The translations under genes were made by a program, and so were the position numbers. Shown one piece after another: positions 55,220 through 60,046 of a stretch of 64,000 bases of DNA (position 1 is the stretch's first letter; every line of letters starts with the position of its first letter). Under the pieces are notes generated by a model. That model was not told where the DNA came from, ran no database searches, and saw only the letters and a program-made list of their open reading frames with translations. Source of the DNA: Thermoleophilia bacterium (GTDB taxonomy: Bacteria > Actinomycetota > Thermoleophilia > Gaiellales > Gaiellaceae); the NCBI GenBank assembly GCA_025928515.1, contig JAICJI010000008.1:1-64000 (forward strand), in the 5' to 3' direction.

Positions 55220-55331
55220 CAACCAAGCCTAAAGAGCGGCCGACCGGGCAGGAGACGGCCGGGCGCCCTAGCTCGACATCGGTGGTCTGTCAAGTCTTGC
55301 GCAGCCTTGCGTCCACTCCGACAATGTGTTC

Positions 55332-55739
55332 ATGAGACCGAAGCAAGCCGCCCCCACGCTGCCCCTGCATCCGCAGGACGAGGCCGAGTGCCGGCGTTGC
55401 GCGGTGCACTGCGAGAAGGTCGTTTATCCGGCGGCGTGTCTCGAGCGGTCGTGTCCGTTCGTCTACGCGTACGAGGAGCATGGGCACACGTTCATGGGGT
55501 GCCTGCAGAACGTGTTCGAGGCGGAGATCGACGTCGAGATGCTCGCGGCCGCCGAGCGAACGCGCGAGGGCTTCGGTGCCGTGCGTGCGCTGCGCGGCCC
55601 CTTGCCGATGTGCGACGCGGCCGTTCAGTCGACGTTCGTGCAGCGCGAGAGCAAGCTCGGCTGCCTCAATCCGGAGTTCGGGGAGCTGCCGGCAGGGTCG
55701 CCGACGTTCCGGGTGTTCGCGCGGGTCGCGGACCTCTAG
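55332..55739 (+). CDS. hypothetical Cys-rich protein, putative metal binding
   Basis: CX2CX3CX8CX4C cluster: CRRCAVHCEKVVYPAACLERSC; further Cys in MGC, PMC and LGC. Confidence 0.7.
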   Translation: MRPKQAAPTLPLHPQDEAECRRCAVHCEKVVYPAACLERSCPFVYAYEEHGHTFMGCLQNVFEAEIDVEMLAAAERTREGFGAVRALRGPLPMCDAAVQSTFVQRESKLGCLNPEFGELPAGSPTFRVFARVADL

Positions 55740-56886
55740 CTTCGAGTCGCCGCAGGATCAGGACGCCGAGGCCCGGCCCGGCCGCGGCGAGGAAGAACGC
55801 GAGGCGCCAGCTGTGGGCGGCGACGACGGCTACGACCGGCGGCGCGCCCGCCACGACGACGCCGAGCAGCGTCTGCTGGAAGCCGAGCGCCGCGCCGGTG
55901 CGCGCCGAGCCGGCCGTTTCGGCGGCCGACGCATAGGCGAGCCCGTTCCACGCCATGCTGAGCACGCCCGCCACGAGGAACAGCGGCACGAGCAGGCAGA
56001 GCGGTGCGTCGGTCGCGGCGGCGACACCCGCGGTGAAGAGGGTTAGCGCGACGCCGATCGCCCTCAGCGGGCGCAGGCGGCTGCCGAGCCGGTCCGAGAT
56101 CCGTCCCGAGCCGATGCGGGCTCCGATCGCGAGCACGTTGATCGCAGCGAGCAGGGCGGCGGCGGCGTGCGTCGAGACGTGACGGTGCTCGTGCAGGAAG
56201 AGCACGACGAAGCCCGTGATCCCGATCTGGGCGGTGAGGTACAGGCCCGTGCCGGTGCCGAGGAGCCACATGCGTGGATCGCGTACCGGGCCTGAGACGT
56301 CGCGCAGCTCCGGCTCGTCTACCGCCCCGGTGCGGATGAAGGCCGCCGCGACTGCGGCGCCGGTCGCGCACGCGCCGGCGAGGAAGAAGAACGCGAGGCG
56401 CGTCCCGCCGGACGAGGCGAGGACGGGGAGGAGGGAGGCTCCGATCGCGCCTCCGATCGGAATCGCGGTCTGCCGGATCCCGAGCGCGAGGCCGAGCTCT
56501 GACGCGGGGAACCACGCCATGATCGCGCGCCCGCTCGCAGCGTTCACGCTCGCCCCGAGCGCCCCGACTCCGACGAGCACGCCCGTGACCGCTGCGAAGC
56601 TGTGCGTGCCGGCGGCGGCCGCGAGCATGACCGCCCCGCCGCTGAGCCCGACCGGGATCACCCACCGCTCGTCGATGCGGTCCGCGACGAGCCCCCACGG
56701 CAGGAGCGTGAACAGCATCCCGATCCCGATCGCCCCGAGCACGACGCCGGTCTCGCCGAGCGTAAGTCCGTACTCCGACTTCAGCGCCGGGCCGAGCGCA
56801 GGCAGGCCGACCGAGGACGCCGAGAAGCTCGCCTGCGCGAGCGTCCCCGCGGCGAGCACGACCCAGCGATAGCGGTCTCGTCTCAC
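55666..56886 (-). CDS. MFS transporter
   Basis: 12-TM pattern; RAIMAWFPASELGLALGIRQTAIPIGGAIGASLLP; GTG start overlapping the nfo stop. Confidence 0.9.
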   Translation of the reverse strand: MRRDRYRWVVLAAGTLAQASFSASSVGLPALGPALKSEYGLTLGETGVVLGAIGIGMLFTLLPWGLVADRIDERWVIPVGLSGGAVMLAAAAGTHSFAAVTGVLVGVGALGASVNAASGRAIMAWFPASELGLALGIRQTAIPIGGAIGASLLPVLASSGGTRLAFFFLAGACATGAAVAAAFIRTGAVDEPELRDVSGPVRDPRMWLLGTGTGLYLTAQIGITGFVVLFLHEHRHVSTHAAAALLAAINVLAIGARIGSGRISDRLGSRLRPLRAIGVALTLFTAGVAAATDAPLCLLVPLFLVAGVLSMAWNGLAYASAAETAGSARTGAALGFQQTLLGVVVAGAPPVVAVVAAHSWRLAFFLAAAGPGLGVLILRRLEARGPRPARTPGTSATLPAAPRTPD

Positions 56887-57746
56887 GCTAGCCAGCGTGC
56901 GCGCAGCTCCTTCGTCTTGCGGATCTCGTTTGCGTCCGGGCCGCGGTTCTCCGGGCCGGCGGTCTCGAGCACCGCGGGTAGCCCTTGCAGCCGCCGATTC
57001 GCGAGGAACACGCCGAGCTTCTCTCCGAGCTCGCCCTCGAGGATGTTCGCGTGCCGGTCGCGGTTGGACGCGAACGGCGCGGCGGCGTCGTTCACGTGGA
57101 GCGCCCGCAGGCGGTCGAGCCCGATCGTGGAGTCGACCTCGTCGAGGCAGGCGTCGAGTGCAGCCGGATCGGTCACGTCCACGCCCGACACCCAGAGGTG
57201 GCACGAGTCGAGGCAGATGCCGAGCCGTGGATGCCGCCCGAGCCGCTCGTTCAGCGTCGCCAGCTCCTCGATCGAGCGGCCGATCGTGCCTCCCGCACCG
57301 GCGGAGTTCTCCATCAGGAGCCACGTCTCGTCGGAACAGAGCTCGAGCACGAGCTCCATCGCCGGCAAGACGCGCTCGAGCCCCGCCTCGAACCCGCTGC
57401 CGAGGTGCGAGCCGACGTGGAAGACGACGCCGTCGGCGCCGATCCCGCACGCGACCTCCATCGTGTTGCACAGCGCGAGTACCGACTTCTCGTACACGGC
57501 GTCGTCGGGCGCGGCGAGGTTGCAGAGGTAGAGCGCGTGGCACAGGACGCCGCCGATGCCGGCCTCCGCGCGCTTTTCGCGAAATCGCTCGAAGCTCGCC
57601 GGGTCGTGGTTCGTCGGCCGCCAGGTGCGCGGGCTCTGGGTGAAGACCTGCACGGAGTCGGCGCCCAGGTCGACCGCGCGGTCGATCGCCTTGTCGATGC
57701 CGCCCGCGGAGGAGATGTGCGCGCCGATCTGCATCAGCGGAGCCAT
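56883..57746 (-). CDS. nfo: deoxyribonuclease IV (endonuclease IV)
   Basis: IGAHISSAGGIDKAI; LLMENSAGAGGTIG; ICLDSCHLWVSGVDV; LHVNDAAAPFASNRDRHANILEG. Confidence 0.94.
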   Translation of the reverse strand: MAPLMQIGAHISSAGGIDKAIDRAVDLGADSVQVFTQSPRTWRPTNHDPASFERFREKRAEAGIGGVLCHALYLCNLAAPDDAVYEKSVLALCNTMEVACGIGADGVVFHVGSHLGSGFEAGLERVLPAMELVLELCSDETWLLMENSAGAGGTIGRSIEELATLNERLGRHPRLGICLDSCHLWVSGVDVTDPAALDACLDEVDSTIGLDRLRALHVNDAAAPFASNRDRHANILEGELGEKLGVFLANRRLQGLPAVLETAGPENRGPDANEIRKTKELRARWLA

Positions 57747-58762
57747 GCCTCCAGCCGCGCTGCCTCGTTCTCGACCTCGCGGCGCCGCACGCGCGGCAGG
57801 GGCGCGAAGGGCTCGACCCGGACGCGTCCGGCCTCGACGCGCCATAGCCCTGCGACGAAGCCGTCGACGAGGAACGTCGCCTCGACCATCCCGCCGCCGT
57901 GGATCACGGTCCGCCGGTGTTCCTCCGCGAGCACGCGGGTGCGGTCGGCGTGCGAGAGGACGAGATTGTCGAAGCGGGGCAGAAAGCGGACCGGCGTGGG
58001 GGAGTCTCCGGCAGGGAGAGGAGCGCGCGGGAGGTCGAGCAGCTCGCGTCCACGCTCGTCGCGGAAACGACGAAGCGGCTCGAGCGCCTCGAGCGCAGGC
58101 TCGAAGTCGCGCACGCGGAGCCCGCTCCACTCCGCGATGTCGGCGCGAGTCGCAGGCCCGAAGGCTCCGAGGTAGCGGCGGACGAGCTGCTTGCGAGCGG
58201 GCGGCGGGTCGACCTGTTCGTGGTCGATCAGGACATATCGCGTCTCGCGGGGCTGCTTCCACATTCCAGAGGCGGGCGCGTGGGTGATCCGTTCGACGCT
58301 GCGCAGCGCGTACCAGAGCCCGGTTCCGCCGTCGTGGTCGATCCCGTGCTCCTCGCGGAGCCAGGCCATGACCTCGGCGCGCGTGCGCGGCTCCCGCCCG
58401 AACTCGAGCAAGGAGCCGTGGACCTGGTCGGCGATCCGAGCCGACTCCGGGCTCACCCACGACGGCAATGCGACCGCCGAGCCGAGCACCCCGTAGTCGC
58501 GACGCGAGACGAGGTGGACGGTGCCGCGCATGAGCACGGCTCGAACCGCCTGCTCGCGGGACAACGCCCGCTCCAGCGCCTCCCGCCGGAACCCCTCGAC
58601 GCGTGTCCAGAGGCCGACGTACGGCGCGGGTGCCCACTGCGCCTGCAGGCCGGCGAGCCGTTCGAGCGCGGCGGTGACCGACAGCCGCCGGCGCTGCAGC
58701 AGCAGCTGGCGCGCGAGCGTGGCGCGATTCAGCTCCCGCACAGTCAGCGTCCGCTCGGGCAC
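57734..58762 (-). CDS. winged-helix HTH_42 family protein, AlkZ/YcaQ-like predicted DNA glycosylase
   Basis: LERLAGLQAQWAPAPYVGLWTRVEGF (Q40-A-Q42); MRGTVHLVSRRDY; LPRFDNLVLSHADR; FLVDGFVAGLWRVEAGRVRVEPF. Confidence 0.85.
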   Translation of the reverse strand: MPERTLTVRELNRATLARQLLLQRRRLSVTAALERLAGLQAQWAPAPYVGLWTRVEGFRREALERALSREQAVRAVLMRGTVHLVSRRDYGVLGSAVALPSWVSPESARIADQVHGSLLEFGREPRTRAEVMAWLREEHGIDHDGGTGLWYALRSVERITHAPASGMWKQPRETRYVLIDHEQVDPPPARKQLVRRYLGAFGPATRADIAEWSGLRVRDFEPALEALEPLRRFRDERGRELLDLPRAPLPAGDSPTPVRFLPRFDNLVLSHADRTRVLAEEHRRTVIHGGGMVEATFLVDGFVAGLWRVEAGRVRVEPFAPLPRVRRREVENEAARLEAWLR

Positions 58763-58768
58763 CCCGCT

Positions 58769-58775
58769 TACGCTA
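58769..58775. promoter_or_regulatory. interlocked -10 elements between AlkZ-like operon (-) and gltX (+)
   Basis: TACGCTA: plus TACGCT (N6-ATG), minus TAGCGT (N7-GTG). Confidence 0.55.
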
Positions 58776-58780
58776 TCCGC

Positions 58781-60046
58781 ATGGCTGTACGCGTCCGCAT
58801 GGCTCCGAGCCCCACCGGGCTCCTCCACATCGGCAACGTCCGCACCGCGCTCTTCAACTGGCTGTACGCCCGCCACGAGGGAGGCGAGTTCCGGCTGCGG
58901 ATCGAGAACACCGACACGTCGCGCGAGGTCGCCGAGGCCGTCGACCACATCCAGGAGTCTCTGCGCTGGCTGGGGCTCGACTGGGACGGCCCGCACACGT
59001 TCCAGCTCGACCGGATGGACGACTGCCGCCGCGTCGCGGCGCAACTCGTCGCGGACGGCAAGGCGTACGAGGACGAGGGCGCGATCCGCTTCCGGATGCC
59101 CGACGAGGGCTCGACCGGCTGGGACGACGTGGTGCGCGGCCGCGTCGAGATCCCCAACGAGACGATCGAGGATCTCGTGCTCGTCCGCTCGGACGGCCGC
59201 CCGACCTACAACTTCGCCTCGCCGCTGGAGGACGTCTGGGACGGGATCACGCACGTGATCCGCGGCGAGGATCACATCTCGAACACGCCGAAGCAGATCA
59301 ACATCATCCGCGCGACCGGAGCCGAGCTCCCCATCTACGCGCACGTCCCTAACGTGGCCGGCGCGGACGGGAAGAAGCTCTCGAAGCGTCACGGCGCCGT
59401 CACGGTGGCCGAGTTCCGCCGGGACGGCTACCTGCCCGAGGCGCTGCTCAACTTCCTGGCGCTGCTCGGCTGGGCCCCCGACGGCGAGACGACGATCATG
59501 GATCGCGACGAGCTCGTGAGGCGCTTCGAGCTGGCGCGCGTCAGCCCGAGCCCCGCGCAGTTCGACTACGCGAAGCTCGACTGGCTGAACGGGATGTACC
59601 TGCGCGGGCTCTCGCCGCAGGAGCTCGGCCACCGTCTCGTGATCTGGCTCGGCGAGAACGGCTACGACTGGGACGCCGAACTCGTCGCACGAACAGCGCC
59701 GCTCGTGCAGGAGAAGATCTCGCGGCTCGCCGAGTTCCCGGACTTCGCGGGGTTCTTCTTCGGCGACGTCGAGCCGGACGTCACCGACCTCGACGGCGGA
59801 GGGCCGATGCTCGCGGCGACCGAGGAGGCCCTCGGCTCACTCGAGCCGTTCGACGCCGCGACCATCGAGTCGGCGCTCCGCGGGAAGGCGGACGAGCTCG
59901 GCCTCAAGGCGCGGCAGGCGTTCCAGCCCATCCGGGTTGCGATCACGGGCTCGAAGGTCTCGCCGGGCCTCTTCGAGAGCATCGAGCTGCTCGGTCGCGA
60001 GACGACGCTCAGCCGCATCCGGGCGGCCCGCGACGCCGCGGGCTGA
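58781..60046 (+). CDS. gltX: glutamate--tRNA ligase
   Basis: RMAPSPTGLLHIGNVRTALFNWL (HIGH-type); GRPTYNFAS; KKLSKRHGA (KMSKS-type). Confidence 0.96.
   Translation: MAVRVRMAPSPTGLLHIGNVRTALFNWLYARHEGGEFRLRIENTDTSREVAEAVDHIQESLRWLGLDWDGPHTFQLDRMDDCRRVAAQLVADGKAYEDEGAIRFRMPDEGSTGWDDVVRGRVEIPNETIEDLVLVRSDGRPTYNFASPLEDVWDGITHVIRGEDHISNTPKQINIIRATGAELPIYAHVPNVAGADGKKLSKRHGAVTVAEFRRDGYLPEALLNFLALLGWAPDGETTIMDRDELVRRFELARVSPSPAQFDYAKLDWLNGMYLRGLSPQELGHRLVIWLGENGYDWDAELVARTAPLVQEKISRLAEFPDFAGFFFGDVEPDVTDLDGGGPMLAATEEALGSLEPFDAATIESALRGKADELGLKARQAFQPIRVAITGSKVSPGLFESIELLGRETTLSRIRAARDAAG

What the first reader, a model, noticed from the sequence alone, without database searches (positions are those of the whole stretch)
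55666..58762. Overlapping operon: AlkZ-like DNA glycosylase - endonuclease IV - MFS transporter
Seen: three minus-strand genes with consecutive overlaps (wHTH/nfo about 13 bp, nfo/MFS 4 bp), so probably co-translated. The first protein is HTH_42-like with LERLAGLQAQW (Q40-A-Q42). Established: AlkZ (Streptomyces azinomycin self-resistance) and YcaQ/AlkX are HTH_42 glycosylases that unhook bulky or crosslink lesions; AlkZ uses a QxQ catalytic motif near residues 37-39. A glycosylase leaves an abasic site, which endonuclease IV cleaves. Inference: a self-contained excision-repair module physically linked to a transporter, possibly a genotoxin-resistance cassette. The transporter could equally be an unrelated importer.
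Basis: partly seen in the sequence, partly recalled or inferred. Interest (0 to 1): 0.72.

Follow-up and report, generated by a model that had tools for sequence, protein, structure and literature searches.

The report
AlkZ-type glycosylase coupled to endonuclease IV
In a soil actinobacterium of the Gaiellaceae, a gene for a DNA repair enzyme that probably clips damaged bases out of DNA sits in front of, and is probably co-translated with, the gene for the next enzyme of the same repair pathway; this pairing recurs in about ten related genomes, although the neighbouring transporter does not belong to it.

Summary
Three minus-strand genes overlap: an HTH_42/AlkZ-like protein (57734-58762), nfo (56883-57734) and an MFS transporter (55666-56886). 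The first overlap is most likely 1 nt (TGATG), not 13; the second is 4 nt (GTGA). The first protein has the AlkZ fold (AF2 pLDDT 92.7; Foldseek AlkZ TM 0.80) and a QAQ motif aligned with AlkZ's, both glutamines invariant in 45 homologs. Nfo keeps all nine metal ligands. The glycosylase-nfo pair recurs at the same site in about ten Gaiellaceae genomes and was not found outside that family in the samples searched. The basic locus is gltX<>nfo around a shared symmetric -10; the glycosylase (one or two copies) sits exactly between that promoter and nfo, and is duplicated, lost, decayed or exchanged among lineages. The MFS gene comes and goes independently (Fisher p 0.43) and is separated by hairpin elements in close relatives, so the 'cassette with a transporter' is not supported. 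The region is housekeeping, with no biosynthetic cluster. Best reading: a base-excision mini-operon that passes abasic sites from an AlkZ-type glycosylase to endonuclease IV. Substrate unknown; no activity was tested.

The parts
57734..58762 (-). HTH_42 / AlkZ-like (AZL-type) putative DNA glycosylase, 342 aa, GTG start; Q40-A-Q42 codons at 58645-58637
   Evidence: PF06224 E 1.3e-67; AF2 pLDDT 92.7, Foldseek 5UUJ AlkZ E 3e-19 TM 0.80; Q40 and Q42 in 45/45 homologs
56883..57734 (-). nfo, endonuclease IV, 283 aa; TGATG 1-nt overlap with the glycosylase stop
   Evidence: TIGR00587 220.5 bits; PDB endonuclease IV E 8e-49; all nine metal ligands of E. coli Nfo conserved
55666..56886 (-). MFS transporter, 406 aa, GTGA 4-nt overlap with nfo; neighbour, probably not part of the repair unit
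   Evidence: PF07690 E 2.4e-39; weak similarity to organophosphate/anion MFS, SLC37A4 E 1e-4; presence independent of the glycosylase
58763..58780 (.). 18-bp intergenic region with a shared symmetric -10 (TAGCGTA, TANNNT on both strands), 6-7 nt from the start codon on each side: predicted leaderless bidirectional promoter for gltX and glycosylase-nfo
   Evidence: TANNNT at 5-8 nt in 18 of 19 junctions on each strand across Gaiellaceae; not tested by transcript data
58781..60046 (+). gltX (glutamyl-tRNA synthetase), divergent neighbour and synteny anchor
   Evidence: PF00749 E 1.3e-81; next to nfo or glycosylase-nfo in nearly all Gaiellaceae loci examined

Best explanation
A two-gene base-excision repair operon built on a conserved gltX<>nfo locus. 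The HTH_42 protein is an AlkZ-type (QxQ) DNA glycosylase that hydrolyses the glycosidic bond of a modified base, probably a bulky or N7-alkylated purine; endonuclease IV, translated from the same message through an overlapping start, cuts the resulting abasic site. Placing nfo in the next cistron keeps abasic-site removal in step with abasic-site production. Shown: gene order, overlaps, predicted fold, catalytic residues, recurrence, exact insertion site, turnover. Inferred: enzymatic activity, the class of lesion, leaderless transcription, and that the coupling is selected rather than incidental. The MFS gene is a neighbour, not a component.
For: AlkZ fold and motif; Q40, Q42, W52, R79 and T81 invariant in 45 homolog rows; intact Nfo active site. 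Same site, order and strand in G000, G002, G004, G005, G012, G013, G026, G193, G229 (split over two contigs) and JACCTU010000195. Overlapping frames at the glycosylase-nfo junction in 6 of 9 readable loci, abutting or within about 15 nt in the other 3; tandem glycosylase copies also overlap each other and always lie 5' of nfo. The start codon of the glycosylase sits where nfo's start sits in genomes without it, behind the same promoter. Literature: E. coli YcaQ crosslink repair depends on Endo IV (PMC13303869); YcaQ overexpression sensitises cells and nfo co-overexpression rescues them (PMC7367128); an AZL product was a poor substrate for E. coli Endo IV, so a specialised AP endonuclease was suggested (PMC8934636).
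Against: The pairing is confined to part of one family; at least 15 relatives examined keep nfo without the glycosylase, and in G005 it carries two in-frame stops, so it is dispensable. Conserved synteny of the whole region could preserve adjacency without functional need. Close homologs in G106, G117, G193 and G203 sit away from nfo. No activity, transcript or phenotype was measured.
Confidence: 0.62

Rival explanations
1. The protein is an ordinary AZL-type glycosylase and its adjacency to nfo is incidental: it landed once or a few times behind a good promoter and is carried by conserved synteny, without functional coupling.
For: The gltX-nfo-CaX-ABC gene order is conserved with or without it; relatives of the same clade occur away from nfo; frequent gain or loss (at least 4 state changes on the backbone tree).
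Against: Site held by at least two deep glycosylase lineages, tandem copies always 5' of nfo, overlapping frames at most junctions, and direct biochemical succession of the two enzymes.
Confidence: 0.26
2. A genotoxin resistance cassette in which the MFS protein exports the genotoxin and the two enzymes repair its adducts.
For: Overlapping genes in this genome; AZL proteins are often self-resistance enzymes with transporters nearby in biosynthetic clusters (PMC9040887).
Against: MFS presence is independent of the glycosylase (Fisher p 0.43; MFS only in 8, glycosylase only in 3); hairpin elements between nfo and MFS in four close relatives; no biosynthetic cluster, housekeeping region; MFS is weakly closest to organophosphate/anion carriers, not drug exporters.
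Confidence: 0.06
3. The winged-helix protein is not an enzyme but a DNA-binding regulator of nfo or gltX.
For: Three winged-helix motifs; first gene of the operon.
Against: Best structural matches are the AlkZ and AlkX glycosylases, then the Lhr C-terminal domain; catalytic glutamines invariant while the middle domain diverges to 20-33% identity.
Confidence: 0.06

Closest known systems
AlkZ of Streptomyces sahachiroi (PDB 5UUJ), AZL subfamily of HTH_42
   Same: Fold (TM 0.80, 23% identity over 366 columns), QxQ catalytic motif in the same place, variable middle domain.
   Different: Not in a biosynthetic cluster; operon with nfo; different taxon; substrate unknown.
YcaQ / AlkX (YQL subfamily; PDB 9ZD6)
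   Same: HTH_42 fold (TM 0.72); not in a biosynthetic cluster; repair known to rely on Endo IV (PMC13303869, PMC7367128).
   Different: QxD instead of QxQ; far side of a deep split in the tree. The genome has its own YQL-like protein elsewhere (G000:C41).
YtkR2 with putative nucleases YtkR4/YtkR5 in the yatakemycin cluster
   Same: A DNA glycosylase gene linked to genes for putative nucleases that would act on its product (PMC8934636).
   Different: AlkD-type glycosylase of another fold, inside a biosynthetic cluster; not compared by sequence here.
Endonuclease IV (Nfo)
   Same: Ordinary member with all nine metal ligands.
   Different: Second cistron behind a glycosylase in part of the Gaiellaceae.

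Membership tests
HTH_42 / PF06224 superfamily | Match over the curated cut-off along the full profile | tested here: met
   229 bits against 25.9, profile 1-329 of 329
HTH_42 / PF06224 superfamily | Winged-helix scaffold of the AlkZ fold | tested here: met
   Predicted model pLDDT 92.7, pTM 0.91; AlkZ E 3e-19, TM 0.80; AlkX TM 0.72
AZL (AlkZ-like) subfamily | (Q/H)-aliphatic-Q catalytic motif | tested here: met
   Q40-A-Q42; both Q in 45 of 45 homologs
AZL (AlkZ-like) subfamily | Phylogenetic separation from YQL (QxD) proteins | tested here: met
   Deep split, 100/100, with E. coli YcaQ and QxD paralogs on the other side; AlkZ itself was not a row of that tree
AZL (AlkZ-like) subfamily | Enrichment in biosynthetic gene clusters | tested here: not met
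   Housekeeping neighbours; no condensation domain and one full-length ketosynthase match in the held genome, 79% complete. An enrichment of the subfamily, not a strict requirement: PMC9040887 also reports AZL genes outside clusters
AZL (AlkZ-like) subfamily | DNA glycosylase activity on a cognate adduct | not testable with these tools
   Needs purified protein
Endonuclease IV (Nfo) | TIGR00587 above cut-off and nine metal-binding residues | tested here: met
   220.5 bits against 129.65; H66 H106 E142 D176 H179 H213 D226 H228 E257 match E. coli H69 H109 E145 D179 H182 H216 D229 H231 E261
Genotoxin resistance cassette with transporter | Transporter inherited together with the repair genes | tested here: not met
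   Glycosylase+MFS 7, glycosylase only 3, MFS only 8, neither 8; Fisher p 0.43

The most novel reading that the evidence does not exclude
A repair operon with an exchangeable damage reader: lineages of Gaiellaceae swap, duplicate or lose AlkZ-type glycosylases with divergent lesion-recognition domains at one fixed slot between a promoter and a constant endonuclease IV, so that locally relevant genotoxin lesions are passed to the same downstream enzyme.
Probability: 0.2. Interest if true: 0.6.

Novelty: new variant of a known kind. Interest (0 to 1): 0.42.

Why it matters
AlkZ-like glycosylases outside biosynthetic clusters have few known partners or substrates, and how cells deal with the toxic abasic sites they make is an open point (PMC7367128, PMC8934636). 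A natural operon with endonuclease IV, in a lineage with several HTH_42 paralogs per genome, gives a directly testable pair, and a place where the presumed lesion-recognition domain varies while the partner stays fixed.

Tried and rejected
(1) Transporter as a component: rejected on presence/absence and on interrupted junctions. (2) Biosynthetic cluster context: none found. (3) A single vertically inherited glycosylase at the site: rejected. The linked proteins are not one clade (p-AU 5.8e-6), and G000 and G004, the only two of a 100/100 backbone clade of seven genomes that have the gene, are not sisters in the glycosylase tree (p-AU 1e-5, 5e-4) although their Nfo proteins are 92% identical. 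Hidden paralogy (an ancestral tandem pair with differential loss, as still seen in JACCTU010000195) and exchange both fit; I could not separate them. (4) Swapping of the middle domain alone: the discordance is also in the rest of the protein (p 8e-4), so not favoured. (5) A first backbone tree with few genes for G000 gave 100/98 for G000+G004; with more genes 87/84, and the MFS tree contradicts it, so I rely only on the seven-genome clade. (7) Wider linkage: none in 61 other actinobacterial genomes holding a P0001-like gene, none outside the family in the class sample or in 80 named loci. These surveys looked for P0001-like genes next to nfo, not for every HTH_42 subfamily.

Full report
What is there. 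The three minus-strand genes are real and correctly placed: an HTH_42/AlkZ-like gene (57734-58762), nfo (56883-57734) and an MFS gene (55666-56886). The glycosylase and nfo overlap by 1 nt (TGATG) if nfo starts at the ATG at 57734. The nfo/MFS overlap is GTGA, 4 nt. On the other side gltX (58781-60046, +) diverges, 18 bp from the glycosylase start.

Identity. PF06224 ('AlkZ-like' in Pfam) matches over its full length with E 1.3e-67; nfo matches TIGR00587 far over its cut-off; the third is MFS_1. phmmer against the PDB finds only AlkZ (E 1.7e-15) and aligns QAQ to QAQ. AlphaFold2 from a 45-row alignment of homologs gives pLDDT 92.7, pTM 0.91. Foldseek ranks AlkZ first (TM 0.80), AlkX/YcaQ second (0.72), then the Lhr C-terminal domain. 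Q40 and Q42 are present in all 45 rows, as are W52, R79 and T81. Nfo keeps all nine metal ligands of E. coli Nfo.

Subfamily. In a tree of 91 HTH_42 proteins from the window's relatives and E. coli YcaQ, the window protein falls on the far side of a 100/100 split from YcaQ and the QxD proteins, in a clade with QxQ motifs. By the criteria of PMC9040887 (QxD = YQL, (Q/H)xQ = AZL) it is AZL-type. Unlike many Streptomyces AZL genes it is not in a biosynthetic cluster: its surroundings are housekeeping (queA, tgt, the division and cell-wall cluster, glycine cleavage, gltX; all but gltX named by eye from the translations), and the held genome has no NRPS condensation domain and one full-length ketosynthase match (genome 79% complete). 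The genome encodes about seven HTH_42 proteins.

Taxon. I therefore take the family to be Gaiellaceae, class Thermoleophilia (inference).

Recurrence. Among 60 relatives and a class sample, the glycosylase lies directly before nfo and next to gltX in G000, G002, G004, G005, G012, G013, G026 and G193, in G229 with the locus split over two contig ends, and in the named record JACCTU010000195. G002, G012 (over two contigs) and JACCTU010000195 have two tandem glycosylase genes. In G005 the gene has two in-frame TAG codons, which looks like decay, though assembly error cannot be excluded. At the same site relatives such as G001, G006, G007, G010 and G014 have gltX<>nfo with nothing between. Outside the family no such pair was found: none of 61 actinobacterial genomes holding a P0001-like gene, none in the rest of the class sample, none among the named loci from Actinomycetota, Myxococcota, Chloroflexota, Bacillota and Proteobacteria.

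Anatomy of the insertion. Between gltX and the gene on the other strand lies TAGCGTA or a close variant. It reads TANNNT on both strands, 5-8 nt before each start codon, in 18 of 19 junctions on either strand. In Actinobacteria such spacing marks leaderless transcripts (titles and abstracts of PMC3160421 and PMC3898074, and general knowledge), and pseudo-symmetric promoters drive divergent transcription in other bacteria (abstract of PMC12825309). The glycosylase's start codon occupies the place of nfo's start codon in genomes without it, so the gene was inserted (or removed) exactly between promoter and nfo. Downstream, frames overlap at 6 of 9 readable glycosylase-nfo junctions and are within about 15 nt at the other 3; tandem copies overlap each other too.

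Turnover. On a seven-gene backbone tree presence changes at least four times. G000 and G004 are the only two of a 100/100 clade of seven genomes with the gene; their Nfo proteins are 92% identical but their glycosylases 51%, and the glycosylase data reject them as sisters. The linked proteins as a whole are not one clade (p-AU 5.8e-6): they come from two lineages, both present in the tandem pair of JACCTU010000195, and four unlinked copies (G106, G117, G193, G203) nest among them. Either an old tandem pair was differentially lost, or homologs were exchanged at the site. Within the linked proteins residues 91-195 are 20-33% identical to the window protein, the N-terminal and WH3 parts 60-79% and the C-terminal part 45-65%. 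In published work a helix of the second winged-helix region of AZL proteins was proposed, from its divergence, as a lesion-recognition element, although the AlkX-DNA structure does not place that region at the lesion (PMC13303869). Divergent recognition is thus a reasonable but unproven reading.

The transporter. MFS is present without the glycosylase in eight genomes, absent beside it in three, both in seven, neither in eight; Fisher p 0.43 (the genomes are related, so this is a rough guide). In G001, G004, G006 and G010 a 150-200 bp element with paired hairpins separates nfo from MFS. Its weak best matches are organophosphate/anion carriers. I see no ground to include it in the repair unit.

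How it most likely works. The glycosylase removes a modified base, leaving an abasic site; Nfo incises it; other BER enzymes finish. The order of the genes puts Nfo in the slot behind the enzyme whose toxic product it removes. In E. coli, YcaQ overexpression sensitises cells and nfo co-overexpression rescues them (PMC7367128), YcaQ-dependent crosslink repair depends on Endo IV (PMC13303869), and for one AZL enzyme the product was a poor Endo IV substrate (PMC8934636). Which lesion is removed is unknown. I found no report of an HTH_42-nfo operon in the held library, which is a limited search.

Verdict. Observation confirmed with a correction to one overlap; interpretation half right. A new variant of a known kind: an AZL-type glycosylase in a recurrent, family-restricted operon with endonuclease IV, of moderate interest.

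Noticed in passing
window 58763-58780; same junction in 18 relatives: gltX and the opposite gene share one symmetric -10 (TANNNTA) 5-8 nt from both start codons, a predicted bidirectional leaderless promoter conserved across the family.
   Followed up: partly
window 55326-55739 (+): Cysteine-rich 137-aa protein with no Pfam or NCBIfam match, conserved at 59-92% identity in nearly all Gaiellaceae loci, whose 3' end overlaps the convergent MFS gene by 74 bp.
   Followed up: partly
L044 2580-2775, L045 4565-4745, L048 5640-5860, L043 1300-1470: 150-200 bp elements made of two hairpins (cores such as CACGTCCGGTGCC/GGCACCGGACGTG) sit between nfo and MFS in four close relatives but not in the window; possibly a dispersed palindromic repeat family.
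   Followed up: partly
L038, L040, L047, L050 between gltX and the next gene: About 600-bp insert that appears to encode a metallophosphoesterase-like protein on the nfo strand, between gltX and glycosylase or nfo (read by eye from the sequence, no family search).
   Followed up: no
L056 3898-5133: In G024 an MFS-like gene on the gltX strand (by eye) fills the gap between nfo and gltX, a different occupant of the same site.
   Followed up: no
G000:C4 15247-17833 and G000:C41 21938-23930: Further pairs of neighbouring HTH_42 genes in the same genome, one divergent and one tandem, of other subfamilies; similar pairs appear in relatives.
   Followed up: no
L040 6246-7280: The glycosylase gene of G005 next to nfo has two in-frame TAG codons in otherwise well conserved sequence.
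   Followed up: partly
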